From Aminipila luticellarii (GTDB taxonomy: Bacteria > Bacillota > Clostridia > Peptostreptococcales > Anaerovoracaceae): DNA of 64,000 nt. This document shows, in pieces, positions 21,776 to 61,817 of this stretch. The position numbers and the translations under genes were made by a program. Under the pieces are notes generated by a model, which was given only the letters and a program-made list of their open reading frames with translations, was not told the origin of the DNA and searched no databases. Position 1 is the first letter of the stretch, and every line of letters starts with the position of its first letter. The stretch covers positions 1,984,001-2,048,000 of the forward strand of contig NZ_CP035281.1 of the NCBI RefSeq assembly GCF_004103735.1, in the 5' to 3' direction.

Positions 21776-21846
21776 TTCATTACCTCTTCCAACATCTTTA
21801 TACCTGCTTGCTCTCCACATTTTTGTATAAGGCTGTCCAGTGCATT

Positions 21847-22689: not shown

Positions 22690-22774
22690 TGGTATGCCCT
22701 CTTTCTGCAATCAATATCTCTATAGACGTATTGTATCACATTCCATCCTTTTATTTTAATACTATTATTTGCTT

Positions 22775-24918: not shown

Positions 24919-24961
24919 GTTCCCCTCCTACTACCATATCTTATCGATTATAGTATCTCCT

Positions 24962-27495: not shown

Positions 27496-27563
27496 ACGCT
27501 CCTCTTGCAAAATAAGGTGATAAACCTTCCGGCCTACCACCTTACCACTACATTTCTATTTCT

Positions 27564-28241: not shown

Positions 28242-28268
28242 GCCTCCTAAAATCCTTGACAGCCAGCA

Positions 28269-28315
28269 ATGGTAAAATAACTATTTGTTTCTTTCATACC
28301 CAAATATTTTACCAT
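28269..28315. repeat. Inverted repeat in the mtbB-mtbC gap
   Basis: ATGGTAAAATA at 28269 is matched by its exact complement at 28305-28315 around a 25-base loop, within the only sizeable gap (186 bp) of the array. No T-run follows on the minus strand, so it is not a standard terminator; it could be a processing or stabilising structure or part of a second promoter (a GGTAAAAT box lies in one arm). Confidence 0.45.
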
Positions 28316-28427
28316 AGTTTTCAGAATTTTGCCATAAGTAATCTTTATTTTAGGGGTCTGGTCTGTATATCTTTTTTATCCGTAAACCCATTTAAATGGA
28401 TCGGTGAAATAAACTACTCCTTGCAGC

Positions 28428-29843: not shown

Positions 29844-29861
29844 CCTTTCCTATAGATTGTG

Positions 29862-31349
29862 TCAAATTTCTTTCCTTGCCTTGAATCTGGCTAATTCTTC
29901 AGCTTCCTCTTCCCCTTCTGCTACGATATCATGAATTTTCTTCTTTACCGCATCGGGAAGCGGCGTCACTTGATAATTTTCCAATATGCTCCGAGCCTGT
30001 TCGTTGGCTACCTGATCTATCGGCTTTGATCCATTTGCTTCCCAGTTTTCACGCATCCTTCGGTTGATCAGATTCGTGGTGGAAAGCTCCTGTTTCATGT
30101 ATTTTCTGGTATGCTTCTGAGCCAAGTAATTTCCGGCAGGTCCTACGGCCTTAATTACATCCAGAGCCAGCGTATCCTTATTTACCGGGATACCTTGAAG
30201 AATTCTCCTCGTCATCTTCACGATTTCCTGATCGATAAGCAGCTGCTCATAGCTCATCGTCATGCCCATTTCAAGCATGCCCATTCCATAAATTACATTG
30301 CTTCCGGTCACCGCAGGAAGCAGACTCGTCAGGGTCTTTTCATGCCCCAGCTGTTCATCCAGACACTTACTGTCCCCCTACGTGCCGCCTACATTAGTAG
30401 GTATTCCGTAGTAATGTCCGATCTGACCGACTGCGGCGCCGCACATGGCATGCTCCGGAGCACCCACCGGCGATTGCGCTGTTTTCATATCCATAATCGT
30501 AGTAGAGGTGCCGTAAAGAATCGGATTGCCTTTATTTATGATCTGAGCCAGAACGATTCCTCCCAGAATTTCAGCATTGGTGCATACTAAGGTTCCGGCC
30601 AGCGTTGCAGGAGTCGTTCCTCCGCAAAGTCCCATGGACAAAATATCAATAGGCAGACCGTATTCTGCTGACAGCTTAATAATGCTCGTTTCATTTTCGT
30701 TGATTTCCAGCGGACTGTTGGGGCAGGCTCCCATGGTAATAATAGGGCGTTCTCTCAGTTTATCATATCCGCCCTGAATGGCCGCCGCCATATCAATGAA
30801 CCGCTTTGTGTTCTTCACACCTTCCAGATCGTGTGCAAAATTTTTGGTCAGATTGTTCAACACGGCCTCTGCTTCATGAAGCGATCGAACCTTTTGATTG
30901 ACATCCCCTGCTGTGACCGCAATGGAGAAAACATCACATTCCTCCATGGAGTCACAGAACCTAGCTACATCGCACAGATCCTGTTTCGTGGTCTCCCGGA
31001 CCTGATGAGTATACGGATCCATTATAAACACACCCGTACCAAAATTTTTGTAAGCGACCCGCTTACCGCCGACTACCGTATCATTCTTAGGATCCCTGCC
31101 GCAAAGAGTAAACTCCGCCGGACAGGCTTCGATGGAATCAATCACTAGGCTTCTGGGAAATTTCACTCGGTCGTTTTCATAATCGACTTCACAGCCGGCT
31201 CCCGCATAAATATCCAGCGCCTCTTTTCCATGAATTTGAAGGCCGTAGTTTTCCATCAGATCCAATGTGGCTTCATGAATGGCATCCAAATCTTCATTCC
31301 GCAGGATGCAGTACCCGTATATATCCGTTTCGTGGGTAAATTTAGCCAT
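29862..31349 (-). CDS. mttB: MttB, trimethylamine:corrinoid methyltransferase with in-frame amber (pyrrolysine 324)
   Basis: With the TAG at 30378-30380 read as pyrrolysine this is a 495-residue protein, the length of archaeal MttB. The upstream part ends GIPTNVGGT, then amber, then GDSKCLDEQLGHEKTL and NVIYGMGMLEMGMTMSYEQL, to a TGA stop. Motifs before the amber include GACPNSPLEINENETS and SMGLCGGTTPATLAG. It moves a methyl group from trimethylamine to MttC. The preserved Pyl codon separates it from the large family of non-pyrrolysine MttB homologues that act on quaternary amines such as glycine betaine. ATG 31349 has GGAGG 7 bp upstream; mttC ends 38 bp before it. Confidence 0.96.
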
Positions 31350-31387
31350 TATGTAACCTCCTATACCTTGAGAATAGGTGAGTTTTC

Positions 31388-32035
31388 TTACAGCTCATCA
31401 ATCCATTTCAAAATAAAGTTTACCGTATCGGAAGCATCCTCACAGTATGCGTCCGCACCGATTTTCTCTGCCCAGCGATTGGTCACCGGAGCACCTCCCA
31501 CCAGAGTCTTTACCTTATCCCGGATACCAGCCGCTTTTAATGCTTCCTCGATATCCTTCTGAACCGTCATGGTGGTGGTAAGCAGCGCACTGCTTCCTAC
31601 GAACTGCGCATTGTGCTCCATGGCGGCATCTACGAACTTCTGAGCCGGTACTTCTCTTCCCAGATCGTATACTTCGACCCCATTCGTTTTCACCAGCGAC
31701 GCCACGATCCCTTTTCCAATGTCGTGTACATCGCCTTCTACCGTACCGATTATGAAAGTACCCTTGGATTTCACGGATGTCATATCCATTTTGCTTTCAA
31801 TATCAGCGGTCACTTGCTTCATCACCTCTGTGGCAAAAATCAGCTCCGGCAGAAAGACCTCTCCCATTCCGAAAAGGTCTCCCAATTCCTTCATGCCCGC
31901 ACTGTATCCGCTGCCGAGTAACTCAATCGGGTCAATTCCTTCCGCTTCGGCATTTGCCAGTGCTTCCATGGCCATGTCTTCGTCCGCTTCAATAATGGAC
32001 TGCTTTGCCGCTTCTAGTATTGCTTCTTTACTCAT
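31388..32035 (-). CDS. mttC: Corrinoid protein, trimethylamine type (MttC-like)
   Basis: The product (about 215 residues from the Met at 32035, with GGAGG 8 bp upstream) is the first gene of the methylamine array. It has the helical cap and the B12 motif EGDVHDIGKGIVASLV, where His104 ligates cobalt, and ends with VGGAPVTNRWAEKIGADAY, typical of these proteins. It carries the methyl group from MttB to a carrier methyltransferase not encoded here. It diverges from a PocR/AraC regulator 205 bp away. Confidence 0.92.
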   Translation of the reverse strand: MSKEAILEAAKQSIIEADEDMAMEALANAEAEGIDPIELLGSGYSAGMKELGDLFGMGEVFLPELIFATEVMKQVTADIESKMDMTSVKSKGTFIIGTVEGDVHDIGKGIVASLVKTNGVEVYDLGREVPAQKFVDAAMEHNAQFVGSSALLTTTMTVQKDIEEALKAAGIRDKVKTLVGGAPVTNRWAEKIGADAYCEDASDTVNFILKWIDEL

Positions 32036-32124
32036 TCCTGTTCCCTCCATTAAAATTAAATGAAATTTTAATACATTCCTATGATTTCATTGTAATAGTT
32101 CCCCTCGCGTAATATATATAAAGT

Positions 32125-32141
32125 ATTTTAGTAATTTTAGT
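32125..32141. promoter_or_regulatory. Direct repeat in the mttC/PocR-regulator divergent promoter
   Basis: ATTTTAGT occurs at 32125 and 32134, nine bases apart, in an A/T-rich stretch between the two divergent genes. AraC-type proteins bind such tandem half-sites. That the adjacent regulator binds here is inference. Confidence 0.35.
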
Positions 32142-32154
32142 GATATTTTTGTTA

Positions 32155-32183
32155 TTGCACTTTCAAGCTTCTTATGCTAGAAT
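32155..32183 (+). promoter_or_regulatory. Sigma-A promoter of the PocR/AraC regulator
   Basis: TTGCAC and TAGAAT are separated by exactly 17 bp, and the start codon of the regulator follows 58 bp downstream. Confidence 0.65.
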
Positions 32184-32240
32184 TCAAATGAAAATTTTTA
32201 TAAGATTTAGGATTATTTTTATGTGTCGGGGAGAACAGCT

Positions 32241-33536
32241 ATGAAGAATTTTGTGATACCCAATTTAGATAAGCCAAACGGAGAGACGCTTTCCGAGTAC
32301 CTGAACAGCTCTATGGAAGCATTTTCCCATATTACGGGGATTTCTGTTACATACTTCAATAATAAGAATGAAATTGTAAAGGAATTTAAGGCCGAGGATA
32401 AAATCTGTAATTTTTTTGATGTGTATAAGCAATGCTCGGGACCTTGCAGAAAGAATTTGACCTCTTCCGGTCAGTTTGCGTCCAGATTAGGAGAACCTTA
32501 TATCTTTCTTTGCAAATCAGGTCTGACCAATATCGCGATCTCTCTTATCATCGATGGTGTTTTTGTGGGTTATTTCATTGCCGGTCCTATGATAATGGGA
32601 GAATTCAGGAACAGCACGGCCAGCAGGTTTTCCCTGCTGAACGATCTCAACGATCTGTCTCTTTCTACCGTCAAAGCCTTTGTAAACAAAATGAAGGTAT
32701 ACCACCCCAATCAAGTCTCACAGGTGGCTCTTCTCTTTTATAACTGCATTATTACCGCAGTCTCTGACAAGAACGACTACAATGCCCTGCGGACCCAGTA
32801 CGGTCAGCAGAATCAAATCAACACCGTTATACAAAAATATAAGAAAACACTGAATCCCATGGAATATCCCTATGATCTGGAAAATATACTGATTACAAAT
32901 GTAACAAACGGACAGATTCAGACTGCCAAGGAAAATCTTCGAGAGCTTTTAAATAAATTCTCTATTCTGGAGGTCGGCGATCTGGAAGGGATCAAAGCCA
33001 AATCCCTGTGGCTCTTTGCCATTATTATGCGAATTGCAAATGAAAATGAAAAAAATATCAGCAGTGTGCTGGATACGGATCTGGACGTGATCAATAAACT
33101 CAGCGAAGCGGCATCCTTTACTGAACTTTTAAATATTTCAGAGAATCTGATCGAGCTGATTACAAGAAATATGCTTTCTTCTATCTATAACGGCCACTCC
33201 CAGATCATTGTAAAGGCCCTTCAATTTATCAATAAGCATTACAAAGAAAAAATCACATTAAAAGATATCGAACAGAATCTTCACGTAAATGCTTCGTACT
33301 TCTCTACTCTATTCAAGCATGAAATGGGCGTGACATTTACGGACTATCTCAACGAATTAAAAATAGAACACGCCAGTGACCTTTTATCCACTACAAATCT
33401 CAGCATTATCGATATATCCTTGTCCGCAGGATTTGACGATCAAAGCTATTTTACCAAAGTGTTTAAAAAGGCCAAAGGCGTGACGCCCAAGCAATACCGC
33501 AGTGCCAATTCTGCGGTCAAAATTCCGACAAATTAA
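32241..33536 (+). CDS. PocR-domain AraC-family transcriptional regulator
   Basis: The product (about 431 residues from ATG 32241, with GGGAG 7 bp before it) has an N-terminal PocR sensor domain (about residues 10-150; Cys-containing FFDVYKQCSGPCRKNLTS, then CKSGLTNIAISLIIDG), a helical middle, and a C-terminal AraC double helix-turn-helix (HYKEKITLKDIEQNLHVNAS; IIDISLSAGFDDQSYFTKVF). PocR domains are known from the 1,2-propanediol regulator and are thought to bind small organic ligands. It faces mttC divergently and lies 460 bp from the diol-dehydratase microcompartment genes, so it may control either. The methylamine array is the closer target. Confidence 0.88.
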   Translation: MKNFVIPNLDKPNGETLSEYLNSSMEAFSHITGISVTYFNNKNEIVKEFKAEDKICNFFDVYKQCSGPCRKNLTSSGQFASRLGEPYIFLCKSGLTNIAISLIIDGVFVGYFIAGPMIMGEFRNSTASRFSLLNDLNDLSLSTVKAFVNKMKVYHPNQVSQVALLFYNCIITAVSDKNDYNALRTQYGQQNQINTVIQKYKKTLNPMEYPYDLENILITNVTNGQIQTAKENLRELLNKFSILEVGDLEGIKAKSLWLFAIIMRIANENEKNISSVLDTDLDVINKLSEAASFTELLNISENLIELITRNMLSSIYNGHSQIIVKALQFINKHYKEKITLKDIEQNLHVNASYFSTLFKHEMGVTFTDYLNELKIEHASDLLSTTNLSIIDISLSAGFDDQSYFTKVFKKAKGVTPKQYRSANSAVKIPTN

Positions 33537-35140: not shown

Positions 35141-37686
35141 TAAAACACCTGCTCTGTCCTTGCAATAATATCATCCTGTAATGTCTTGTCCAGCGCTACA
35201 AAGTGTGCGCTATAGCCGGCAACCCGTACCACCAGATTCTTATAGGCATCCGGATTTTTCTGAGCTTCCAATAACGTCTCTCTGCCCACTACATTATATT
35301 GAACATGCATACCCTTCTGATCGAAGAAACCTCTTACTAATGCAGCCAGCTTTTCCAGTCCGGACTGACCGCTTAAAGCAGATGGGTGGAACTTCTGATT
35401 GAACAAGGTCCCGTTGGAAGCAATGGCATGATCCAGCATGGCTACTGAATTGGCGGCAGCTGTCGGGCCGTGTACGTCTCGTCCGGAAATAGGAGATACG
35501 CCGTCGGCTAACGGTTCTCCTGCTTTTCTTCCGTCTGGAGTAGCCCCGGTCTGCGCCCCCATAGGCACATTGGCAGAAACCGGATATAAGCCCGGCTGGA
35601 AGGAACCGTTTCTTGGATTTTTATGTTTTTCAACTTCCCGGCAGTAAACCAGAGCGACCTCTTTCGCCATCAGATCAACAGCCTCCATATCATTGCCAAA
35701 CTTAGGAACTGCTTTAATATCGTTTATTAACTTTGAACATTCTACGCTTTGTCCGGAAGTATTCCCCACCTTCGACAGACCCTCCACTAACGCTGTCAGC
35801 ACAGTGGCTTGCTCTGTAGTAATCTTCTTTCCGCCGTCCGTTAGTTTGCCGACCATATTTTCAATATCCCGTCTCGTAAGGCCGCCCATTAGGCTTGTTG
35901 TTCCCGTACCTTCAAAGTCAGCGGCCATTGCTGCTTTAATCTGCTGTATAGTATAGAGCTTTTTATCATAGACCAGTTCCTTCAATACTTCCATGGAGTC
36001 CGCCACGTTGGCAACACCTACCCCTTGCGGGCCTGTAAAGTTATATACCGCTCCGCCTTCCTGCACGGATTTTCCTCTTCCGATGCAATCCGATACCATA
36101 GAAGATAAGAAAGGCAGCGGAGCTCTCTCTCCATGGGCAATGTCTACCGCATTGTCCGCATTGGCCAGTAAGGATACAAAATATTCCATCTGAGCCTTAT
36201 AGGCTTCCATCAGCTGTTCAAAAGTAGTAAATTCTGATACATCCCCCGTCTTTGGACCAATTTGGACGCCGTTGTCTAATCCATTGTTCAGGGTCAGTTC
36301 CATGACTCTTGCCAGATTGAAGAATGCGGCATCATGCCAGCCCTCTGTCTTTCCGCCTTTCTGGGGTTCTACACATCCAATGATTCCATAATCTCTCGCA
36401 TCCTCCATGGTCAGTCCCCGGCTTACAAGGGCAGGAATGATCACTTCGTCGTTATAATAAGCCGGCATGCCCAATCCGACTCGGCTCACTTCCGCCGCCT
36501 TCATTAAGAATTCATCCGGAGACTTGTTCCATATACGCACTGAAATGGATGGCTGCGGCAATTTTGTATGCTCGGTGGCTTCCAGGCAGGCAATGGATAA
36601 TTCGTTCGTGGCATCCGCTCCCGATACGTCCTGTCCGCCTACGATCAAGTTCTGGAACAATGGATATCCGCCAAATCCCTTAGTAGATCCTTCATCTCTT
36701 ACCTTATTAATGTCATTGAACTTGACCCATAAGCAGTCCAGCAGTTCCTGTGCACTTTCTTTTGTCAGCTTATGAGATTCGATATCGGCTATATAATAGG
36801 GATACATGTATTGATCAAAGCGAAGAGGAGAAATCGAATGTCCGTTTGATTCAATCTGTATAATGGCTTGTACAAACCAAAACGACTGAATTGCTTCATA
36901 GAAGTCTCCTGCCGGTTCTGCCGGTACTTTCTTGCAGTTCTGAGCAATTTTAAGCAGCTCTTGACTTCTTGCCCCACTGGTCTGTGCCGCCAGCCTTTCC
37001 GCAAGCTCCGCAAAACGATGGGCAAAATAAATGGCTGCATTTGCCGTGATGATCACTGCTTCCAGAAAGTTTCTTTTTTTAATAAAATCCGGGCAATTTT
37101 TATCTGAATTTTCCAGCTCCTCTGTTGCTTCCCTGATAATGCCGTTAAATCCGACCTTTAATACCTTTTCATAATCTACTCCGATATGGCCTACGCCGTT
37201 AAAATAATAATTTCCCACTGTGAACACATTGTGTTCAATGGCCGTTCTTGTCTCGGGATACATATATTGAGTGGCCAGCTCATTTACTGTTTTTCCATCC
37301 CAGTAAACAAAAGCTTCTCTCAGCTTTTCCTTTGATTCCTGGCTGATTTCAAACACATCTCCTTTTCGGAGCGCCAAGGTTTCAAATTCATCCAGCAGCC
37401 ATTTATACGAATATTCAGGAAAGACCTGAGTGGAGAAAGGGGCTTTCGTCAGATTTCCTACCACCAGCTCGTTGTCTCTGATTACAATAGGCAGATTATG
37501 CAATACATGCTCTAAAGCCTTTGCTTTTCTTAAAATGGTAGGCAGATTCTCCGTCATGCGAAAGGATTCTGTTACTAAAACCGCTCTCTCCCATTCGACC
37601 TGAGGTTTTCCTTTGAATAATTCATCTACCAGCCCCTGAATTCTTGGGCTAACACTAACATTGGATATATCTAAGTTCCTATTCAT
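35140..37686 (-). CDS. B12-independent 1,2-propanediol/glycerol dehydratase (glycyl radical enzyme)
   Basis: This 848-residue GRE has radical site VRVAGYSAHF (Gly824) and thiyl site GIIGCVEP (Cys438, Glu440). Active-site residues fit the glycerol dehydratase structure: His283-Ser284 in NGHSIS, Asp452 fourteen residues after the Cys (GWHDAAFFN) and His167 in GVGHIG. Choline lyase CutC has Thr and Tyr at +13/+17 instead, so this is not CutC. It converts 1,2-propanediol to propionaldehyde or glycerol to 3-hydroxypropionaldehyde. It is about 60 residues longer than the C. butyricum enzyme, mainly through an insert near residues 595-650, which may target it to the shell. Shell genes flank it, and a glycerol-facilitator-like channel is upstream. 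Which diol is preferred is not certain; the PduB-like shell favours propanediol. Confidence 0.9.
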   Translation of the reverse strand: MNRNLDISNVSVSPRIQGLVDELFKGKPQVEWERAVLVTESFRMTENLPTILRKAKALEHVLHNLPIVIRDNELVVGNLTKAPFSTQVFPEYSYKWLLDEFETLALRKGDVFEISQESKEKLREAFVYWDGKTVNELATQYMYPETRTAIEHNVFTVGNYYFNGVGHIGVDYEKVLKVGFNGIIREATEELENSDKNCPDFIKKRNFLEAVIITANAAIYFAHRFAELAERLAAQTSGARSQELLKIAQNCKKVPAEPAGDFYEAIQSFWFVQAIIQIESNGHSISPLRFDQYMYPYYIADIESHKLTKESAQELLDCLWVKFNDINKVRDEGSTKGFGGYPLFQNLIVGGQDVSGADATNELSIACLEATEHTKLPQPSISVRIWNKSPDEFLMKAAEVSRVGLGMPAYYNDEVIIPALVSRGLTMEDARDYGIIGCVEPQKGGKTEGWHDAAFFNLARVMELTLNNGLDNGVQIGPKTGDVSEFTTFEQLMEAYKAQMEYFVSLLANADNAVDIAHGERAPLPFLSSMVSDCIGRGKSVQEGGAVYNFTGPQGVGVANVADSMEVLKELVYDKKLYTIQQIKAAMAADFEGTGTTSLMGGLTRRDIENMVGKLTDGGKKITTEQATVLTALVEGLSKVGNTSGQSVECSKLINDIKAVPKFGNDMEAVDLMAKEVALVYCREVEKHKNPRNGSFQPGLYPVSANVPMGAQTGATPDGRKAGEPLADGVSPISGRDVHGPTAAANSVAMLDHAIASNGTLFNQKFHPSALSGQSGLEKLAALVRGFFDQKGMHVQYNVVGRETLLEAQKNPDAYKNLVVRVAGYSAHFVALDKTLQDDIIARTEQVF

Positions 37687-48473: not shown

Positions 48474-48595
48474 TAAATTAAATATATTTGCAAAAATTTT
48501 TAATATGCAGAATACAATGTATTCCATATAAATAAGATGCATATATTTGAAGTATATTATTTTTGCCCAAACAGTCAAAAGGGAGGTGCATTCTT

Positions 48596-50287
48596 ATCCC
48601 GGATGATATTTTATTTTCATCAGATATTGTTGACTTCACCATAAGAAAAGATGCTTATTACGCACCCTTGATACTATCGAATCCCAAACTAATCGCCAGT
48701 CACACCGTTGCAGGTCTTTATGTCATCTGCTATGTATACGTAAATGATTTCCCCGATATGGTTTATTATATGGGTTCTGATTTTATAAATAGTATTTCAA
48801 ATGTTTTTGGGCTTACACAGCAGCCCGCTTTGGAGGATTCCGGCATTATACAGGTTCAAGAGCAGCCGTATCTGAATCTGAGGGGCAACAATGTACTGAT
48901 TGGTTTTGTGGACACCGGTATTGACTATACGCAGTCTGTATTTAAATATGAGGATGGAACCAGTAAAATTAAATTTATTTATGATCAGAGTATTCCGGGC
49001 ACACCGCCTGTCGGATTCCCTCTGGGAACCGAATATACCAACGAACAGATCAATGCGGCACTGTCAGCAGATAATCCGCAGGAAGTGGTGCCGCATGTGG
49101 ACACAGCAGGGCACGGCACATTTTTAGCTTCCGTAGCTGCCGGACGTCCTGTTGAGGACTATATCGGGGCTGCCCCTGACTCTGAAATTATCATGGTAAA
49201 ATTGAAAAAATCCTATCCCTTTTATCTGGATCATTACTACGTTCCGCCGGAGCAGGAAAATGCCTTTTCCTCTACCTCTGTCATGCTCGGTGTGGAGTAC
49301 ATCTTGCAAAAAGCGGAGGAATTGAATCGCCCTGTAGTTTTATGCATTGGCATCGGCTCCAATTACGACAGTCATGACGGAGAATCTCTTTTAGAGGATT
49401 ATTTATTCAATACTTGCAGTATACCGGGCGTCTGTACTTGTATCTCAGTTGGAAATGAGAGCCAGGCAAGGCACCACTTTTTTCAGCAGATCACGCCAAA
49501 TGAGGCACCTGTCAATATTGACATAAGAGTGGGGGAAAATGCAGGAGATATTTTTGTTATTATTATGAATAAATATAGTGACAGAATTTCTGTTTCCGTC
49601 CGCTCGCCTACTGGGGAACTGATAAGCCGTGTTCCCGCCAAAGCGGGGCGGACTTCTACGACTCAGCTGATCCTAGAACGCTCCGAGGTCAGCGTGTCCT
49701 ACTATTTTCCGGTGGGAGGCAGCGGAAATCAAGCTACTATAGTAAGAATACGAAACGCCACTCCCGGCGTGTGGACCATTATCGTCTATGGGGACATTAT
49801 TATAGACGGTCAAATTAACGCATGGCTGCCGCTGACCGGTTTTGTTTCCCCTACTGTGGAATTTTTATCCTATACCCCTTATACCACCATCACGTCGCCT
49901 GCCATCAATCTGGGTCCTATACGCTGCGGAGCTTATAACAGCTTCAATAACAGCCTTTATCCGAATTCTTCCTGGGGGCCAACCAGACATTCGCAGGATG
50001 TACCGGATTTTGTGGCACCGGGATATCAGGTGGGCGGATTCTTTCCTACGGGATATGGCACGATGAACGGTACCAGCGTATCTGCTGCCATTACGGCGGG
50101 AGCCTGTGCCTTGATGCTTCAATGGGGGATTGTAGACGGTAATGATTCAGGGTTTAACACCACTGCAATCCGAGCTTACCTGATTCGAGGCTGCCGGCGC
50201 AGTGATACCATACAATATCCGAATGTGCAATGGGGTTTTGGCACACTGGACTTGATGCAATCCTTTGTCTACATGCGTCAAGTCTGA
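48596..50287 (+). CDS. Csp-like subtilisin-family (S8) protease, first copy
   Basis: About 563 residues with an intact subtilisin triad: Asp in IGFVDTGIDYT, His in DTAGHGTFLASVAAG and Ser in MNGTSVSAAITAGACAL. It has no signal peptide; a jelly-roll-like insert around residues 330-450 matches clostridial CspB-type germination proteases. It aligns closely with the second copy (about 70% by eye). The start is uncertain: GGGAGGTG is followed 7 bp later by ATC, aligning with the TTG start of the second copy, and no ATG, GTG or TTG is in range. Csp proteases activate the spore cortex hydrolase SleC, but no SleC is visible here, so a spore role is inference. Confidence 0.85.
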   Translation: MPDDILFSSDIVDFTIRKDAYYAPLILSNPKLIASHTVAGLYVICYVYVNDFPDMVYYMGSDFINSISNVFGLTQQPALEDSGIIQVQEQPYLNLRGNNVLIGFVDTGIDYTQSVFKYEDGTSKIKFIYDQSIPGTPPVGFPLGTEYTNEQINAALSADNPQEVVPHVDTAGHGTFLASVAAGRPVEDYIGAAPDSEIIMVKLKKSYPFYLDHYYVPPEQENAFSSTSVMLGVEYILQKAEELNRPVVLCIGIGSNYDSHDGESLLEDYLFNTCSIPGVCTCISVGNESQARHHFFQQITPNEAPVNIDIRVGENAGDIFVIIMNKYSDRISVSVRSPTGELISRVPAKAGRTSTTQLILERSEVSVSYYFPVGGSGNQATIVRIRNATPGVWTIIVYGDIIIDGQINAWLPLTGFVSPTVEFLSYTPYTTITSPAINLGPIRCGAYNSFNNSLYPNSSWGPTRHSQDVPDFVAPGYQVGGFFPTGYGTMNGTSVSAAITAGACALMLQWGIVDGNDSGFNTTAIRAYLIRGCRRSDTIQYPNVQWGFGTLDLMQSFVYMRQV

Positions 50288-50336
50288 ATCATGCTAAGCA
50301 TCAGCCGACAGGCTGAAAGCAGGAGGTGTATTTTAT

Positions 50337-52025
50337 TTGAATGAGGATATCCTATTTTCTCCGGATGTCGTGGATTTTATGATCCGAAAAAGTGCTTCCT
50401 ATGCGCCGCAGATACTGGCGCATCCCGGACTGATCGCAGCACACTCCATTGGCATGTATTTTATCTGTTATGCAAAAACGGAAGATTATCTGGAGATGAT
50501 GGAGTATGTGGGGAGCGATTACATCAATACCGTTCCCACCATTCTGGGTCTTCTGGACCGCGCAAGTCTGGAAGCTGCCGGCATCATTCAGGTCCAGCAG
50601 CAGCCATACTTAAACCTGAACGGGTCAAATGTCTTAATCGGATTTGTGGATACCGGTATCGACTATACACAGCCTGCTTTTCGATATGAGGACGGGCGGA
50701 GCAAGATCCGGTTTATATATGACCAAAGTATTCCGGGAAATCCTCCGGAAGGCTTTCCCCTAGGAACTGAATATACCAATGAAAATATTCAGACGGCTTT
50801 ATCTTCCGATACTCCATACGAGGTAGTTCCCCATATGGATACCGCAGGTCACGGTACCTTTCTGGCTTCTATTGCTGCGGGACGGCCCGCTGACAATTTC
50901 ACAGGTGCCGCTCCTGATTCAGAAATCATTATGGTGAAGCTAAAAAAATCGTACCCTTTTTATCTGGACCGATTTTGTGTACCGGAGGAACAGGAAAATG
51001 CCTTTTCGGCTACTGCTGTTATGCTGGGCGTTGAATACATTTTGCAGAAAGCGGAAAAACTGAACCGGCCGGTGGTCATCTGTATCGGTCTCGGCTCCAA
51101 TTATGACAGCCACGACGGCTATGGTATTTTTGCGGAATACTTATATAATATTTCCAACAACCCGGGGGTTTGCTTATGTATTGCTGTCGGCAATGAAAGC
51201 CAAGCAAGGCATCACTTTTCTCAGCAATTTTCCTCGGACGGAGCTCCTCAAAACATTGATATCATGGTAGGAGAAAATGCAGGAGATATATTTGTTCTCA
51301 TAGGGAACACAATCAGCGACCGGATTTCCGTATCGGTCCGCTCCCCAACAGGCGAACTGGTAAATCGAGTCACTCCCATATCCGGATATACCTTTAATTC
51401 TCAGCTCGTGCTGGAACGCTCGCAGGTCACCGTATCCTATTACTACCCACTGGAGGGAAGCGGAGATCAAATCACGATCATCCGAATTCTGGATGCCACT
51501 CCGGGTATATGGACAATCACGGCGTATGGGGACATCGTACTGAACGGCAGTCTCAATGCCTGGTTACCTTTAACAGGCTTTGTTTCTCCCACCGTGGAAT
51601 TTTTATCCTCTACTCCTTATAACACCATTACCTCTCCGGCCAATGCTCCCGGTGGTGTACACTGCGGCGCCTACAACAGTTTTCGAAACAGCCTGTATCC
51701 GAATTCTTCTTGGGGCTCTACTATATTGCCGCTGGATTTGCCGGATTTTGTGGCTCCGGGATATCAGGTAGGCGGCTTCTATCCAACCGGTTATGGCACC
51801 ATGGATGGCACCAGTGTGGCAGCGGCCATCACGGCGGGAGCCTGCGCCCTCATGCTTCAATGGGGAATTGTGGAAAGCAATGATTTAGGGTTCAGTACTC
51901 CCCTGATCCGGGCTTATCTGATTCGGGGGTGCCAGCGTACCGACGTCATGGATTATCCCAATCCCCAATGGGGCTTTGGAACGCTGAACCTGTTGCAGAC
52001 CTTCTTCTATATGCGGGAACTGTAA
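50337..52025 (+). CDS. Csp-like subtilisin-family (S8) protease, second copy
   Basis: 562 residues starting at TTG 50337, with AGGAGGTG 8 bp before. The triad is intact: GFVDTGIDYTQPAF, DTAGHGTFLASIAAG and MDGTSVAAAITAGACAL. It is a tandem duplicate of the preceding gene 49 bp away, diverged evenly along its length. Its 3' end overlaps the convergent crcB gene by 19 bp. Likely role as for its twin: processing of a spore or wall protein. Confidence 0.87.
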   Translation: MNEDILFSPDVVDFMIRKSASYAPQILAHPGLIAAHSIGMYFICYAKTEDYLEMMEYVGSDYINTVPTILGLLDRASLEAAGIIQVQQQPYLNLNGSNVLIGFVDTGIDYTQPAFRYEDGRSKIRFIYDQSIPGNPPEGFPLGTEYTNENIQTALSSDTPYEVVPHMDTAGHGTFLASIAAGRPADNFTGAAPDSEIIMVKLKKSYPFYLDRFCVPEEQENAFSATAVMLGVEYILQKAEKLNRPVVICIGLGSNYDSHDGYGIFAEYLYNISNNPGVCLCIAVGNESQARHHFSQQFSSDGAPQNIDIMVGENAGDIFVLIGNTISDRISVSVRSPTGELVNRVTPISGYTFNSQLVLERSQVTVSYYYPLEGSGDQITIIRILDATPGIWTITAYGDIVLNGSLNAWLPLTGFVSPTVEFLSSTPYNTITSPANAPGGVHCGAYNSFRNSLYPNSSWGSTILPLDLPDFVAPGYQVGGFYPTGYGTMDGTSVAAAITAGACALMLQWGIVESNDLGFSTPLIRAYLIRGCQRTDVMDYPNPQWGFGTLNLLQTFFYMREL

Positions 52026-53675: not shown

Positions 53676-54563
53676 TTAATATTTTTCCATATCTATTTTT
53701 TCTGTTGGTGCCGGAAAGGATTTGGAAAGCTGCTCCAGATCCTCCTCCGTCAGGATGATACGGCTTGCCGCCGCATTTTCCTCTATGTGCTCTACTCCCA
53801 CCGCCTTTGGAATGGCAACCATATCCTCCAGCCTTAAGACAAAGGCAAGTAGCAGCTGAACTACTGAAATCCCATGCTTTTTTGCTACCTGGCAAACATT
53901 TTGATCCTTCATCAGTATGGCTTTTGATATGCCGTCTTGGGTGGTCAAGCCTCCTGCCTGGCCTACCGGGCTGTATGCCATAAAAGGAATCTGCCGTTCT
54001 CTTTGCCAGTGAAGCAGATCATACTCAATTCCCCTTGTCCCCAGATTATATAAAACTTGATTGGTGCTGCATTGATTGCCATCCGGTACCTTCCACAGAT
54101 CTTCCATATCCTCCACATCAAAATTTGAAACGCCCCACCGCTTAATTCTGCCTTTTTGTTTCAAATCCTCCATGCAGTATACCATTTCAGAAAGGTCGGT
54201 ATCTTCTCGCCAATGCAGAAGATATAAGTCCAGATAATTCGTTTCCAATAATTTGAGAGAGCGTTCCAGACTGCTGTAAATATGTTTTTTACATGCGTTC
54301 TTCGGGTAGACCTTGCTGACCAGATAAACATCTTTTCTTTCAACGTTTCTTATGGCATTGCCGACGATATTTTCCGCTTTGCCGTCTGCATACATTTCAG
54401 CCGTATCGATCAGGGTCATTCCCATATCAATTCCATGCCTGAGACCGTTTATTTCCCTTTCATAGTTGGAATCATCTTCTCCCATTAACCAGGTGCCTTG
54501 GCCTAACTTAGGCATATAGGAGCCATCCGGCAATTTTACTCTTTGTTGCTTCAATATTTCCAT
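53676..54563 (-). CDS. Aldo/keto reductase
   Basis: About 295 residues from the Met at 54563 (AGGAGG 12 bp upstream), with MGMTLIDTAEMYADGKAE (Asp-Tyr of the catalytic tetrad), KVYPKN (Lys), LYLLHW (His) and the cofactor end region MVAIPKAVGVEHIEEN. It reduces aldehydes/ketones with NADPH. No operon partner; it is transcribed away from the AraC regulator. The 238-bp gap to that gene is A/T-rich with no clear feature. Confidence 0.9.
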   Translation of the reverse strand: MEILKQQRVKLPDGSYMPKLGQGTWLMGEDDSNYEREINGLRHGIDMGMTLIDTAEMYADGKAENIVGNAIRNVERKDVYLVSKVYPKNACKKHIYSSLERSLKLLETNYLDLYLLHWREDTDLSEMVYCMEDLKQKGRIKRWGVSNFDVEDMEDLWKVPDGNQCSTNQVLYNLGTRGIEYDLLHWQRERQIPFMAYSPVGQAGGLTTQDGISKAILMKDQNVCQVAKKHGISVVQLLLAFVLRLEDMVAIPKAVGVEHIEENAAASRIILTEEDLEQLSKSFPAPTEKIDMEKY

Positions 54564-56681: not shown

Positions 56682-56704
56682 CGGCGGCTCCTTGCGAGCC
56701 GCCG
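56682..56704. terminator. Terminator between AraC-GH39 and the permease gene
   Basis: CGGCGGCTC/GAGCCGCCG with a 5-base loop. On the minus strand it is followed by CTTTTT, so it ends the GRE operon; the plus-strand side has TTTAAAAT. Confidence 0.85.
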
Positions 56705-56726: not shown

Positions 56727-58238
56727 TCAATCCATTTCAATGGCTGATATGGAATGTCTGTCTGCGCCTTCCGGCGGTGTGAAATCCATATCCTCATATC
56801 TTACCCATTTTGTGTGTTTTTTCTTTTTATATCCGAAGAAGAAGATAAATCCAAGAGGAATCAACCCATAGCTGGTAATAAAATTAAACCAACTAAAGTC
56901 CGAGAATACCCAATAATTACATGTAATCAAAACGAAAGTGCAGATTGTAATGGAAAACAAGGTTCCATACGGATAACATGGTGCTTTATATTTTAATTCA
57001 TCTAAGCTATGTCCCTGTTTGATCCAGCCCTTTCTGAATCGATAATGAGCCAGACTGATAGTCAGCCAGTTGACTATCCCCGCAACTCCGCAAAGATAGT
57101 ATGCAGCTGTATAGGCAACCCCATCGCCGACAAGGGAAGCGATAAATGCAGAGGAGGCAATAAGTCCGGTTAAAACGATTGCTCTCACCGGCACCCCTTT
57201 ATTGTTTAATTTTGCAAAATAGCTCGGTGCCGCCCCCTTTTTAGCCATGACCTGAATCGTTCTCGATGCACAATACAAGGAGGCATTTCCGCAGGATAAT
57301 ACGGAGGTCAAAATAACAGCGTTCATAAGGGAAGCTGCCGCAGCAAAACCGGCATTTTTGAATACAATCGTAAACGGTGATGCCGCAATGTTATCTTCCG
57401 CTGCATCAAGCAAAGTCGGTTCCGTAAAAGGAATTAAGGTTGCGATGACAAGAATTGCTCCAATGTAAAAAATTAAAATTCTCCAAAATACACTTTTGAT
57501 TGCCTTGGGAACATCCTTGGAAGGATTCTCGGATTCGGCCGCCGTCAATCCGATTACTTCTGTATTGGAGAAGGAGAAAGCGGCTACCAGGAAAACTAAA
57601 ATCACGCCGCCTGCACCATTGGGGAACGGAGCTTTTCCGGCTTCTCCGCCGTCAAGGACCCAGTTTGAAAATTCCACTTCATGTCCGCCAACGCCCATAA
57701 TACCCGCAATCATCAGTACCCCGACAATTAAGAAAATAATGGTTACAACTACCTTTATACCGGCAAACCAATACTCTGCTTCACCGAAGCCCTTGACTGA
57801 AAATAAATTAATAGCCATCAAGATTGCCAGAAACAACATGGCCCATAACGAGGAATTTGTGCCCGGAAACCAGTACTTAATAATAATGGAGCCTGCAATC
57901 AACTCTGCCGCTACCGTCATAGCACAGCCGAACCAATACGACCACCCATTCATAAAACCCCATGCCGGATCAATAAAGCGATCGGCGTAGGCAGTAAATG
58001 CTCCGGGCACCGGAAGTTCCGTTGCGATTTCGCCTAAGGCCGTCATCATAAAATACACGACAACGCCCATAATTGCATAAGCCAGAACAGCACCGCCGGG
58101 GCCTGCATCATGGATTGTGCCGCCCATGGCCAGAAACAGCCCGGTACCAATGGTACCTCCAATAGCTATCATAGTGAGATGTCGGCTTTTCAAGCCTCTC
58201 TCCAGGTTCTCTCTTTCGTGAATTCCATCCTTACCCAT
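56727..58238 (-). CDS. AAT-type amino acid permease (APC superfamily)
   Basis: The 503-residue, 12-helix protein begins with ERGLKSRHLTMIAIGGTIGTGL and has FSFSNTEVIGLTAAESENPSKD, signatures of the LysP/ProY group. It is the last gene of the unassigned GRE operon, 59 bp after the activase. It suggests the GRE substrate is an amino acid or derived from one. AAGGAG precedes ATG 58238. Confidence 0.9.
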   Translation of the reverse strand: MGKDGIHERENLERGLKSRHLTMIAIGGTIGTGLFLAMGGTIHDAGPGGAVLAYAIMGVVVYFMMTALGEIATELPVPGAFTAYADRFIDPAWGFMNGWSYWFGCAMTVAAELIAGSIIIKYWFPGTNSSLWAMLFLAILMAINLFSVKGFGEAEYWFAGIKVVVTIIFLIVGVLMIAGIMGVGGHEVEFSNWVLDGGEAGKAPFPNGAGGVILVFLVAAFSFSNTEVIGLTAAESENPSKDVPKAIKSVFWRILIFYIGAILVIATLIPFTEPTLLDAAEDNIAASPFTIVFKNAGFAAAASLMNAVILTSVLSCGNASLYCASRTIQVMAKKGAAPSYFAKLNNKGVPVRAIVLTGLIASSAFIASLVGDGVAYTAAYYLCGVAGIVNWLTISLAHYRFRKGWIKQGHSLDELKYKAPCYPYGTLFSITICTFVLITCNYWVFSDFSWFNFITSYGLIPLGFIFFFGYKKKKHTKWVRYEDMDFTPPEGADRHSISAIEMD

Positions 58239-58297: not shown

Positions 58298-59233
58298 TTA
58301 GATTTTCCCCAGAATCTCCACTTCCATTGCTGCCTCTTCCTCAAAAAGCTTCTTAATTTCTAAAACATATTCCTCCGACGGCGGTTCATATCTCTGTTGA
58401 ACTCCTCCGATTCGATTCATTTTAGATAATCCCAAATCATGATAAGGAAGTAACGTCACACTCTTTATGTTATTTTTTTTATAGAAATCACTTGTCTTTT
58501 TCATCATCTCCCAGCTGTCATTCATCCCTTTTATCAAAGGCATTCTCATTACAATTTTTCCAACGACTTCAGGTATTTGAGTCAGTCTGCATAGGTTTTC
58601 CAGAATTTTCGTATTTTCCTGTCCCGTATACGTTACATGTTTTTCATTATCCATGAACTTCATGTCATATAAAATAAAATCAACGTTTTCTTTTCTTGAC
58701 AGCTTTTCTAACACATTCCCATCACCAAAGCCTGATGTGTCAAGGCAAACGTTGATTTCTTTCTCTGCGGCCTGATCCACAAGAGCCTCCACAAAGCGAG
58801 GGTGAGACAGCATCTCACCTCCGCTTATGGTCAGCCCTCCGTTTGTATGATCATAAAAGCCTTTATCCTGTGCAACCTGATAGAGCACCTCTTCTACCGT
58901 CATATGTGTCGCTACCGGCTGCAAGCCTTTGGAATAACAGACCTCCGTACACGTCAAACACTTGCTGCAGGCTTCTCTGTTAATCCGGATACGACCTTGC
59001 TCATCGAGGTAAATGGCTTTGTCCGGGCAGGCAGGGATACAATAACCACATTGGATACAGCTGTTGGGAGATTCGATGACCTCCTGCTCAAAGCTAATCA
59101 GCTCAGGATTGTGGCACCATACGCAATTCAGCGGACATCCCTTTAAAAAAACCGTGGTTCGGATTCCCGGTCCATCCTCCGTTGAAAACTTTTGAATGCC
59201 TCCTACCAATACAGATAAAGATTCTTTTTTCAT
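58298..59233 (-). CDS. Glycyl radical enzyme activase with ferredoxin insert
   Basis: The 311-residue radical SAM protein has EDGPGIRTTVFLKGCPLNC as landmark, with cluster Cys33, Cys37 and Cys40, and then an eight-Cys ferredoxin-like insert (Cys59, 62, 65, 69 and Cys89, 92, 95, 99) binding two extra 4Fe-4S clusters, followed by GGLTISGGEML. This long form is normal for eliminase/decarboxylase GRE partners. It starts 12 bases after the TAG of the GRE gene, in the same reading frame; AGGAG lies in between. Confidence 0.93.
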   Translation of the reverse strand: MKKESLSVLVGGIQKFSTEDGPGIRTTVFLKGCPLNCVWCHNPELISFEQEVIESPNSCIQCGYCIPACPDKAIYLDEQGRIRINREACSKCLTCTEVCYSKGLQPVATHMTVEEVLYQVAQDKGFYDHTNGGLTISGGEMLSHPRFVEALVDQAAEKEINVCLDTSGFGDGNVLEKLSRKENVDFILYDMKFMDNEKHVTYTGQENTKILENLCRLTQIPEVVGKIVMRMPLIKGMNDSWEMMKKTSDFYKKNNIKSVTLLPYHDLGLSKMNRIGGVQQRYEPPSEEYVLEIKKLFEEEAAMEVEILGKI

Positions 59234-59245
59234 ACTTTCTCCTTG

Positions 59246-61615
59246 CTAGCTAATTTTCAAGTGAGCTGTTCTGTCGATAATCGTGTCCTGTGCCGCCTTA
59301 TCCAGTTCTGTAAAGTACGCCATATATCCGGCCACTCTGACCATCAGTCCTTTATAATCTTCCGGCTTTTCCTGTGCTTTTCTCAAAGTCTCATCATCCA
59401 CCACATTAATCTGGATATGCTCTCCGCCGTGTTTAAAATACGTTTTTATCACACCTTCAATCGTCTGGAGTCCCTTTTCTCCGGAAATTCCTTTGGGATC
59501 AAACCGTATATTGAACAGAGCTCCGTCATGGAATTTTTTCTGATCGATTGCCGCTACCGATTTCACCGTTGCCGTAGGACCGCATATATCTCTGCCCATA
59601 GTCGGAGAGGAATTATCGCAATATGGCTGACCTGCCAGTCTTCCGTCCGGAGTAGCTCCGCATACTTCACCATGGGAAATATTTACCGTCTGGGACAAAT
59701 TGCAGAAGGAATAATGTCCGTGTCTGGAGTCTTCCCACTGCTGTACGGTTTCGGCAACAAATCCCAGAATATCTCTGGCAACGCCATCCACATACTCGTT
59801 GTCATTACCAAATTTAGGCGGTTTATTGATCAATAATTGTCTCAATCTCTCATTGCCTTGGAAATTATTATCCAAAGCTGTAATTAATTCATCCATGGAA
59901 ATAGTTTTATCTTTGTATACCACTTCTTCTATAGCAACCAATGAGTCTGCCAGATTTGCCGCTCCGGTAATGAACATTCCAGCTGTACTGTATTTTGCTC
60001 CGCCTTCCTGAACTGATTTTCCTAATTCAACGCAGCCATCCACTGCCATGGAAGCAAAGATGACCGGCAGCCTCAGCATGTGGTAAGGAACCATTAAATC
60101 GTATCCGTCCTTAATCATCTGATAGAAGTAAATAAGTTGTTTTTTAACGGCTTCTGTCAATTCTTTGACGTCTTTAAAATCCTTTGCCTCTCCTGTTTGA
60201 AGACCCAGCTGTTCACCGGTCTTTGGATCTCTTCCGTTATGGAGCACCAGCTCTAATACCTTCGGCGCATTTACATATCCCGCGTCGGGAGAGCTGTCTG
60301 TAGTTCCGCCTCCGGGTGCCGGCTGTATGCAGCCTACAATGTTCCAATCTCTGGCTTCTTCCATGGTGCAGCCCTTTCCCAGGACCATTGGAATCGCTGC
60401 ATCGTCATTAAAGAATCCGGGGTTTGCCATTCCCGCCTGCATCATTTCCGCACCCTTTCGGAAAAGTTTTTCCGGCGTTCCCTCATGTACTCTGACTGCG
60501 AGAACCGGTTGGGTCGTCTGAAGATCAGATCCCGCTTCCAGACACAGATAGGACAAATCATTTGTTGCGTCTTTTCCGTCCGTAGTCTGTCCGCCGACCA
60601 TCAGAATTTCCCACATTGGATAGCCCGCAAAGGATTTGGAATACCATCGGTCTCTGACCTCATATACCTCGCAGCACTTCAAATAGAAGCATTCAATTAA
60701 TTCCAGTGCTTCTGCTTCCGTTATTTTTCCGGCTTCAAGATCTGCTTGATAGAACGGATACATATATTGGTCGAATCTGCCGAATCCGCACGCCGTGGTA
60801 GGTGCTTCAATATGGAAGGCAACCTGAATGAACCAGATCATCTGCACAGCCTGATGGAAGCTTTGAGGCGGATTTTCCGGAACAACTCTGCAATTTTCCG
60901 CAATCTGCATCAATTCTGCTTTCCTCTTTTGATCCGTGCACGCTCCGGCTTGTTTTTCGGCTTCCTCCGCCATACGGTGTGCATACGTGATCATGCCTTC
61001 GCAAATGATGATACAGGCTTTCCAGAAATCCACCTGCTCCTGCTTCTCTTTCGTTCCGCCCTTGACTCTGTCAATATTCTCCCGGCATTCTGCGATAAAG
61101 CCTCTTAGTCCTAAGTTCAAGAATTTTTTGTGATTAGGCGTGGTTTCTCCCGATACGCCGTTTCTGCATCCCACAGAAATCAAATCCTTTTGCCTTGCAT
61201 TTTCGATATAATCCGGAAGGATTTCAGGAGCTAGGTCTTCAAGCGCTCTGCCTTTCCAATACTTCAAGGTTTCCAGAATAGTCTCCCGATCTTCTGGCTT
61301 AATGTTATACGGATCGGTCTTTCTGACTGGAAAATCATCTATATCTTCTATCAGCCATGAACTGGATGTGTACTCCGGAAATAAATTGGCTCCCCGATAT
61401 TCGTTAGTTGGGGTTCCCACAATCAGCTCATCCGCAAGAACCAAGGTCGTCATATTTTCCATGACATATTGCGCAATCCTTGCTCTAAAAATTGGAATGG
61501 CATCACCCGCAAATTTTTTGTGCGCCTCTGTTGCCAGTACCAGTCTCTCCGCAGTAATACTTGGAGTGGTATCAAAATATTTATTTTTCATTCTTTGAAG
61601 TCTTTCGTTTAACAT
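59246..61615 (-). CDS. Glycyl radical enzyme of unassigned substrate
   Basis: With the start at the Met at 61615 (AGGAGG 6 bp before), the protein has 789 residues, a normal GRE length, radical site VRVAGYMAYF (Gly763) and thiyl Cys429 in NIVGCIQPAPGGGT. The residue two after the Cys is Gln431; the known eliminase GREs (glycerol, propanediol, choline, hydroxyproline, isethionate) and the arylacetate decarboxylases I recall have Glu there. The usual GHSIS segment is TACGFGRFDQY. These differences make a diol dehydratase, CutC or typical HypD unlikely. The amino-acid permease and activase in the operon suggest an amino-acid-like substrate. TAG stop lies in frame with the activase. Family certain; reaction unknown. 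Confidence 0.85.
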   Translation of the reverse strand: MLNERLQRMKNKYFDTTPSITAERLVLATEAHKKFAGDAIPIFRARIAQYVMENMTTLVLADELIVGTPTNEYRGANLFPEYTSSSWLIEDIDDFPVRKTDPYNIKPEDRETILETLKYWKGRALEDLAPEILPDYIENARQKDLISVGCRNGVSGETTPNHKKFLNLGLRGFIAECRENIDRVKGGTKEKQEQVDFWKACIIICEGMITYAHRMAEEAEKQAGACTDQKRKAELMQIAENCRVVPENPPQSFHQAVQMIWFIQVAFHIEAPTTACGFGRFDQYMYPFYQADLEAGKITEAEALELIECFYLKCCEVYEVRDRWYSKSFAGYPMWEILMVGGQTTDGKDATNDLSYLCLEAGSDLQTTQPVLAVRVHEGTPEKLFRKGAEMMQAGMANPGFFNDDAAIPMVLGKGCTMEEARDWNIVGCIQPAPGGGTTDSSPDAGYVNAPKVLELVLHNGRDPKTGEQLGLQTGEAKDFKDVKELTEAVKKQLIYFYQMIKDGYDLMVPYHMLRLPVIFASMAVDGCVELGKSVQEGGAKYSTAGMFITGAANLADSLVAIEEVVYKDKTISMDELITALDNNFQGNERLRQLLINKPPKFGNDNEYVDGVARDILGFVAETVQQWEDSRHGHYSFCNLSQTVNISHGEVCGATPDGRLAGQPYCDNSSPTMGRDICGPTATVKSVAAIDQKKFHDGALFNIRFDPKGISGEKGLQTIEGVIKTYFKHGGEHIQINVVDDETLRKAQEKPEDYKGLMVRVAGYMAYFTELDKAAQDTIIDRTAHLKIS

Positions 61616-61761
61616 CTCAAACCTCCTGTTCATGATGCATAAGAAATAATTACTATTTTACTGTATCATATGATTTACTTAGGTCGAACTCAACTATTTG
61701 ATTGTTTAAAAAGTTAATTTGATTGCGATATAGTATAAAAAACGACAGAAAACGACAAAAA

Positions 61762-61801
61762 GAGCTGAGCACAAGCGATTTTATTCGCTTGTGCTCAGCT
61801 C
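61762..61801 (-). terminator. Terminator of mntH; hairpin repeat copy A
   Basis: GAGCTGAGCACAAGCGA pairs exactly with its complement around a 6-base loop, and on the minus strand TTTTT follows. The same ~45-bp sequence recurs upstream of mntH. The rest of the 184-bp gap to the GRE start shows only A/T-rich promoter-like sequence. Confidence 0.85.
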
Positions 61802-61817
61802 CATGTTTTTTTATTTT

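What the first reader, a model, noticed from the sequence alone, without database searches (positions are those of the whole stretch)
59246..61615. GRE with Gln in place of the catalytic-site Glu: likely an unassigned reaction
Thiyl motif is GCIQPAPGGGT; the residue two after the Cys is Gln431, where the eliminases and decarboxylases recalled have Glu serving as acid/base. The substrate-side segment TACGFGRFDQ also differs from the diol dehydratase GHSIS. Operon with activase and an amino-acid permease suggests an amino-acid-derived substrate and possibly a reaction not needing a general base.
Basis: partly seen in the sequence, partly recalled or inferred. Interest (0 to 1): 0.68.

Follow-up and report, generated by a model that had tools for sequence, protein, structure and literature searches.

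The report
Radical enzyme with rearranged catalytic pocket
This anaerobe carries an oxygen-sensitive radical enzyme that lacks the glutamate its known relatives use for catalysis and has a different glutamate on the facing side of the pocket; a whole bacterial enzyme family shares this double change, and what it reacts with is not known.

Summary
Window 59246-61615(-) encodes a 789-residue glycyl radical enzyme (GRE) with an intact Gly loop (Gly763), thiyl Cys429, and Gln431 where GRE eliminases carry the CXE glutamate. Gln431 is present in 84 of 84 distinct clade members collected. Close relatives outside the clade (L102, L108) keep the ordinary His and Glu. So the carboxylate was probably moved rather than lost, and 'no general base needed' is not the best reading. 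No NCBIfam equivalog cut-off is reached, and solved relatives are at most 38% identical. Context splits the clade: one part pairs the GRE with an aldo-keto reductase or an SDR (never both in 47 loci), often with a LysP-family permease; another has Asp640 and an NhaC-type transporter without either reductase. I infer a radical 1,2-elimination on a cationic amine or amino acid, giving a carbonyl that is then reduced. The substrate is unknown; the permease has lost LysP's lysine-specificity residues. A new variant of a known kind; no description of it turned up in the papers I could search.

The parts
59246..61615 (-). GRE, 789 aa, CXQ type (Cys429, Gln431, Glu157, Thr274, Trp335, Asp444, Tyr447, Leu640, Gly763)
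60323..60331 (-). codons of Cys429-Ile430-Gln431 (CXQ in place of CXE)
61145..61147 (-). codon of Glu157, beta-1 pocket site (HypD His160 / CutC Asp216 / IslA Gln193 position by alignment)
60284..60286 (-). codon of Asp444 (aligned with the Asp of the WHD motif of glycerol dehydratase)
59327..59329 (-). codon of radical Gly763 (RVAGYMAYF loop)
58298..59233 (-). radical-SAM GRE activase, 311 aa, with ferredoxin-type clusters
   Evidence: TIGR02494 293 bits over cut-off 174.35; Pfam
56727..58238 (-). amino-acid permease of the LysP family, 503 aa
   Evidence: PF00324 442.9 bits; LysP 9eyd 468.7 bits
54802..56655 (+). AraC-type regulator with cupin domain, 617 aa; AraC relatives near the GRE in 39 of 80 loci
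53676..54560 (-). aldo-keto reductase (start set by homology); AKR or SDR recurs beside the GRE in relatives
   Evidence: PF00248 183.4 bits
61761..61802 (.). 17-18 pair terminator-like hairpin separating the GRE from the NRAMP gene
   Evidence: 10 such sites of all strengths found, shuffles 7.1 +/- 3.0
56682..56704 (-). terminator-like hairpin after the permease

Best explanation
An active GRE of the eliminase fold whose acid/base layout is rearranged. Shown: intact Gly763 loop, Cys429, adjacent activase, eliminase-like predicted fold, and clade-wide Gln431 + Glu157 + Asp444 where HypD-type enzymes have Glu + His. Inferred: the activase makes the Gly763 radical; Cys429 abstracts H from a cationic amine or amino-acid substrate; Glu157 (hydrogen-bonded to Gln431) and Asp444 bind its ammonium group and do the proton transfer that the CXE Glu does elsewhere; radical 1,2-elimination of water or an amine gives an aldehyde, ketone or imine; in the window's subgroup the neighbouring AKR (an SDR in relatives) reduces it. 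The substrate is not identified.
For: Clade-wide conservation. Relatives L102 and L108 keep His/Glu with Ser/Val at the Asp444 site; L102 is sister to the 27 clade rows in a 38-row tree, 100/100 and 100/99. In 185 non-redundant GREs beta-1 Glu is found in 45 of 52 without the CXE Glu and 7 of 133 with it. HypD E436Q and H160Q are inactive, so Gln alone should not suffice in a HypD-like site (PMC7077986 passages). The beta-1 site contacts substrate in IslA, CutC and HypD (PMC8473560 passages), and CutC Asp216 stabilises a cationic amine (PMC12451663 passages). Two solved GREs with beta-1 Glu (8id1, 8iof) are titled N-methyl-4-hydroxyproline dehydratases. AKR or SDR near the GRE in 32 of 47 well-flanked loci, never both; 26 of 47 if only SDRs of 45% identity or more to the probe count. 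LysP-type permease and, in some relatives, ArcD-like transporters.
Against: The covariation rests on few events: about 5 losses of the CXE Glu and 4 changes of beta-1 Glu on a FastTree. A sister clade has Gln with His (4 of 185), and one clade member (L101, first GRE) has Ala157, so Gln does not require Glu157. One member (L024) has His274. Structure Z-scores do not separate reaction classes cleanly: eliminases IslA (45.8) and HpsG (45.6) score like decarboxylases (45.2). Subgroups without AKR/SDR exist. The distant SDRs (25-32%) may be unrelated.
Confidence: 0.5

Rival explanations
1. One reading: no protein base is needed; Gln431 only hydrogen-bonds a substrate carbonyl or carboxylate, and Glu157 is structural or only holds an amine.
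For: The Gln/His sister clade (L017, L025, L026, L118) and the Val/Glu group show that GREs tolerate loss of the CXE Glu; IslA uses a Gln at beta-1 to bind sulfonate (PMC8473560 passages).
Against: Glu157 and Asp444 are nearly invariant in the clade and change together with Gln431 relative to L102/L108.
Confidence: 0.2
2. It is an amine (C-N) lyase that releases a methylated amine from a quaternary or N-methyl amino compound, a CutC-like reaction with a different base.
For: beta-1 acid as in CutC; MttB (trimethylamine methyltransferase family) within 9 kb in 5 of 80 loci, also beside the operon in same-genus genome G001 (L139); the window holds an MttB gene at 29904-31316. Of 61 relatives, MttB occurs in 4 of 9 genomes with the clade GRE and 3 of 52 without, Fisher p 0.007 uncorrected for kinship.
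Against: 75 of 80 loci show no MttB within reach (many contigs are short); 5 of 9 clade-bearing genomes lack MttB; 3 of the 4 positives are one genus; the own genome has another GRE with the CutC-type motif (L002), which could supply trimethylamine; the permease is not of a known quaternary-amine type (recalled).
Confidence: 0.12
3. It dehydrates or deaminates a hydroxylated amino acid such as 5-hydroxylysine, by analogy with HypD and HplG.
For: HplG, titled a C-N cleaving hydroxyproline enzyme, is the top PDB sequence match (596.5 bits); LysP-family permease; the named hosts include Aminicella lysinilytica and Anaerovorax (that they ferment amino acids or amines is recalled).
Against: HypD His160, Asp278 and Glu436 equivalents are all replaced; LysP Asn104, Trp105 and Ser377 are replaced, so lysine-like recognition is not predicted. 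The one paper search pairing hydroxylysine with glycyl radical found nothing relevant.
Confidence: 0.13
4. An unrelated GRE reaction (decarboxylation, C-C bond cleavage or formation).
For: Loss of the eliminase CXE motif; structure scores overlap with decarboxylases for some eliminases.
Against: Best sequence and structure matches are dehydratases, HplG and CutC; single Cys in GC, not the CysCys of PFL; NCBIfam decarboxylase scores are far below cut-off (502.9 of 1100 and 371 of 1150).
Confidence: 0.05

Closest known systems
HplG, hydroxyproline C-N cleaving GRE (7vua)
   Same: Fold (Z 50.7), 38% identity, best PDB sequence score; amino-acid substrate by its title
   Different: Keeps Glu at Cys+2 (GCIEP)
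B12-independent glycerol/propanediol dehydratases (1r8w, 5i2a)
   Same: Fold (Z 54.4 and 55.0), 36-37% identity; Asp444 aligned with an Asp in 1r8w
   Different: 1r8w has GCVEP, GHVSVDY and GHSIS; here GCIQP, GETTPNH and TTACG
[quoted passage not shown]
   Same: Fold (Z 52.4), 33% identity; best NCBIfam equivalog (581.3 bits)
   Different: Below cut-off 1100; Glu436, His160 and Asp278 equivalents are Gln, Glu and Thr
CutC, choline trimethylamine-lyase (5fau)
   Same: Fold (Z 53.6); acidic residue at beta-1 (Asp216 there, Glu157 here) and Thr at the Thr334 site
   Different: Keeps Glu491; 558.7 of 1050 bits
N-methyl-cis-4-hydroxyproline dehydratases (8id1, 8iof)
   Same: Glu at beta-1 by alignment
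   Different: Keep the CXE Glu (GCVETN); 33-34% identity

Membership tests
Glycyl radical enzymes | C-terminal glycyl loop | tested here: met
   RVAGYMAYF, Gly763; Gly_radical 106.7 bits
Glycyl radical enzymes | Thiyl Cys, GRE barrel fold, partner activase | tested here: met
   Cys429; structure matches Z 36-55 to GREs; TIGR02494 over cut-off for the adjacent activase
[quoted passage not shown]
   CIQ; Gln431 in 84 of 84 distinct clade members
GRE eliminases | Carbon-heteroatom elimination | not testable with these tools
   No assay; inferred from fold and neighbours
HypD | NCBIfam NF043068 cut-off; Glu436, His160, Asp278 | tested here: not met
   581.3 of 1100 bits; Gln, Glu, Thr
CutC | NCBIfam TIGR04394 cut-off; Glu491 | tested here: not met
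   558.7 of 1050 bits; Gln431
B12-independent diol/glycerol dehydratase | His/Glu/His pocket of 1r8w (residue roles recalled) | tested here: not met
   Glu, Gln and Thr at the three aligned positions
HplG | Glu at Cys+2 as in 7vua | tested here: not met
   GCIEP against GCIQP
Aminoacyl radical enzymes (AAREs) | Ala, Ser or Thr in place of the radical Gly (PMC11528403 section 8) | tested here: not met
   Gly763; Gly in 82 of 82 readable clade members
Pyruvate formate-lyase | Adjacent CysCys (recalled); NCBIfam TIGR01255 cut-off | tested here: not met
   GC, not CC; 149.6 of 994.2 bits
LysP lysine permease (neighbour gene) | Asn104, Trp105, Ser377 for the lysine side chain (PMC12764776) | tested here: not met
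   Gly, Cys, Cys in the window; Glu112, Phe215, Ser216 kept

The most novel reading that the evidence does not exclude
A GRE family in which the catalytic carboxylate has moved from the Cys loop (CXE) to strand beta-1 (GxGE with CXQ), inverting the Glu-His pair of HypD, to run an unassigned radical elimination of an amine or water from cationic amino acids or amines; subgroups marked by residue 640 and by the transporter use different substrates.
Probability: 0.4. Interest if true: 0.7.

Novelty: new variant of a known kind. Interest (0 to 1): 0.55.

Why it matters
GRE eliminases are described by one motif, CXE. A conserved clade without it, with a second linked change in the pocket, is a natural test of how the substrate radical is coupled to proton transfer, and it points to an unassigned amine or amino-acid reaction in gut and rumen anaerobes. 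The swapped-pair prediction can be tested with a few point mutants.

Tried and rejected
Methylamine-lyase idea: suggested by MttB neighbours in 5 of 80 loci; kept only as a rival. Lysine as substrate: LysP specificity residues are changed. AARE, PFL and arylacetate decarboxylase membership: not met or far below cut-off. Inactive pseudo-enzyme: unlikely, since Cys, pocket and Gly loop are conserved and an activase is near in 71 of 80 loci. AKR and SDR substrates could not be read from their nearest solved relatives. Promoter-like sites were at chance level, 20 found against 19.5 in shuffles. No model coordinates were available, so no pocket distances were measured. Literature: nine searches of the held library listed no paper describing a CXQ clade; I read passages or one section of seven papers only. 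Levin 2017 and the 2017 GRE review are not held, and one search did not list the HplG or N-methyl-hydroxyproline papers, so this absence is weak. In PMC8364193 (Emergencia timonensis) the passages seen name only CutC as a GRE.

Corrections and dropped rows: three LysP sites were mis-indexed by one and redone. The clade count of 88 still held copies of the same contigs; one search dropped 10 copies of 95 rows at 53% identity or more, and L102, leaving 84. For one search, 290 GRE ORFs gave 249 distinct and 185 at 85% identity; clade members served as bait, so 39 of 185 is not a prevalence.

Full report
Observation. The window holds at 59246-61615(-) a 789-residue GRE. Cys429, Gln431, TACGFGRFDQ and Gly763 are as described. 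Activase and permease follow on the same strand, 12 and 59 bases apart. A 17-18 pair hairpin at 61761-61802 separates the GRE from the NRAMP gene and another at 56682-56704 follows the permease (hairpins of all strengths number 10 against 7.1 +/- 3.0 in shuffles), so GRE-activase-permease is probably one operon. An AraC-type regulator (opposite strand) and an aldo-keto reductase lie beyond.

Family. NCBIfam subfamily TIGR01774 is over cut-off (689.1 of 678.2 bits); no GRE equivalog is reached, the best being HypD 581.3 of 1100 and CutC 558.7 of 1050. The best PDB sequence match is HplG, 596.5 bits. An AlphaFold2 model from 27 sequences (mean pLDDT 92.5, pTM 0.92) matches propanediol dehydratase 5i2a at Z 55.0, glycerol dehydratase 54.4, CutC 53.6, HypD 52.4, HplG 50.7, IslA 45.8, HpsG 45.6, arylacetate decarboxylases 45.2, benzylsuccinate synthase 41.3 and PFL 36.3. 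Eliminases lead the list, but IslA and HpsG score like decarboxylases, so fold alone does not fix the reaction.

Spread. Among 61 relatives, 9 genomes hold a match of 55% identity or more (my count from the rows). A scan of the named genome collection returned 79 loci, capped at 80 candidates of 133 (L028-L106): many unnamed Clostridia MAGs, Anaerovorax, Emergencia, Hornefia, Aminicella, Oscillibacter and the actinobacterium Slackia, which nests inside the clade and suggests transfer. The own genome has seven GREs, two of this clade: the window copy and a 65% identical paralogue.

Pocket. In 84 distinct clade sequences (window included; 10 copies and L102 left out): Cys429 84, Gln431 84, Trp335 84, Asp444 84, Tyr447 84, Thr274 83 (one His, L024), Glu157 82 (one Ala, L101 first copy; one gap, L079), Gly763 82 of 82 readable. 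The Glu157 site aligns with the beta-1 position that PMC8473560 calls a common substrate-contacting site (IslA Gln193, CutC Asp216, HypD His160); [quoted passage not shown] In HypD, His160 lies 2.5 A from Glu436 and is proposed to tune it; E436Q, H160Q and D278N showed no activity although a reduced amount of radical formed (PMC7077986 passages). The clade thus has Gln and Glu where HypD has Glu and His. L102 (55% identical to the window) and L108 (47%) keep His and Glu, with Ser or Val at the Asp444 site. In a 38-row tree L102 is sister to the 27 clade rows (100/100 and 100/99), with the second CXQ clade outside; L108 was not in that tree. CXQ therefore arose twice, or once with a reversal.

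Wider survey. In 185 non-redundant GREs the pair (Cys+2, beta-1) is Glu/His 115, Gln/Glu 39, Glu/Glu 7, Glu/Asp 6 (CutC type), Val/Glu 6, Gln/His 4, Glu/Asn 3, and one each of Gln/Ala, Glu/Cys, Asp/Gly, Glu/Arg and Ser/Arg. Beta-1 Glu occurs in 45 of 52 without the CXE Glu and in 7 of 133 with it. This contrast is dominated by one clade that served as bait: on a FastTree the states need about 5 losses of the CXE Glu and 4 changes of beta-1 Glu, so it is suggestive, not a test of many independent events. The main Glu/Glu group matches 8id1 and 8iof, titled N-methyl-cis-4-hydroxyproline dehydratases; the Val/Glu group is nearest to CutC. Both fit the idea that an acid at beta-1 goes with charged amine substrates, as in CutC (PMC12451663 passages).

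Context. In 80 loci (79 plus the window; one, L102, is the Glu type) an activase is within 3 kb in 71, an AraC regulator within 7 kb in 39, AKR in 17, SDR in 26, the LysP-type permease in 15, the NhaC-type transporter within 4 kb in 13 and MttB within 9 kb in 5. In the 47 loci with at least 4 kb on both sides, AKR occurs in 13 and SDR in 19, never together; 13 of the SDR loci remain if only hits of 45% identity or more count. The permease is in 9, 8 of them with AKR or SDR; the NhaC type is in 7, none with AKR or SDR. Residue 640 is Asp in 13 of 13 NhaC loci; it is His, Leu or Met in the AKR, permease and SDR loci of the clade. This suggests at least two substrate groups, both present in the own genome (the paralogue has Asp640 and the NhaC gene). 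The exclusive AKR/SDR pairing suggests that a carbonyl product is reduced, or less likely that a substrate is prepared. EamA, ArcD-like and YfcC-like transporters, agmatinase-like and M20 genes recur in smaller numbers.

Permease. The closest solved chain is LysP 9eyd, 468.7 bits. PMC12764776 (passages) assigns lysine specificity to Asn104, Trp105 and Ser377. The window protein has Gly, Cys and Cys; 15 full-length rows from relatives have Gly, Ser (14) or Cys (1), and Cys, while Glu112, Phe215 and Ser216 are kept; two more distant rows (L151, L101) keep Trp105. I read this as an alpha-amino-acid carrier with a wider side-chain pocket.

Mechanism. Shown: an intact radical apparatus and the CXQ/Glu157/Asp444 set, conserved in the clade and absent from close canonical relatives. 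Inferred: Glu157, hydrogen-bonded to Gln431, and Asp444 bind a cationic substrate and carry the proton transfer of a radical 1,2-elimination, whose carbonyl product AKR or SDR reduces. Not shown: substrate, leaving group, geometry. Mean pLDDT of the pocket blocks is 76 (151-160), 86 (271-280), 88 (421-430), 84 (431-440) and 82 (441-450).

Verdict. The finding is real and more than one substitution. 'Unassigned reaction' stands within what could be searched; 'no general base' is not the best reading. New variant of a known kind; interest 0.55.

Noticed in passing
window 20966-33533: An apparent methylamine and pyrrolysine gene cluster: MttB with one in-frame TAG at about 29904-31316 was confirmed by PF06253; the corrinoid, MtbB, Pyl and PocR-type neighbours were named from recall of their sequences.
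   Followed up: partly
window 35143-37686 (-): A second GRE of glycerol/propanediol dehydratase type (GCVEP, GHSIS; 826.8 bits PFL-like) with an activase-like gene and an aquaporin-like gene beside it.
   Followed up: partly
L017, L025, L026, L118: A separate GRE clade, about 45-47% identical to the window enzyme, also has Gln at Cys+2 (GCVQP) but keeps His at beta-1; no NCBIfam equivalog for L026.
   Followed up: partly
L020, L204, L210, L214, L253, L254: A third noncanonical GRE group, nearest to CutC, has Val in place of the CXE Glu (GCVVPHF) and Glu at beta-1; L253 scores 776.0 of 1050 bits for CutC.
   Followed up: partly
L104, L105: Clade GREs beside an SDR; in L104 also carboxylesterase-like and amidohydrolase-like genes and a sugar-type (GPH) symporter, suggesting an ester-derived substrate there.
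   Followed up: no
L043, L050, L054, L057: Clade GRE and activase followed by M20 amidohydrolase, CoA-disulfide-reductase-like and SDR genes, suggesting an N-acylated substrate there.
   Followed up: no
L032, L038, L064: Clade GREs followed by a ketol-acid-reductoisomerase-like gene (only the L032 protein was scored: TIGR00465 267.5 bits over 226.15; others judged from their first residues).
   Followed up: no
window 48563-52025 (+): Two adjacent genes for related subtilase-like proteins (named from recall of the sequence), with similar genes upstream of the GRE in L139.
   Followed up: no
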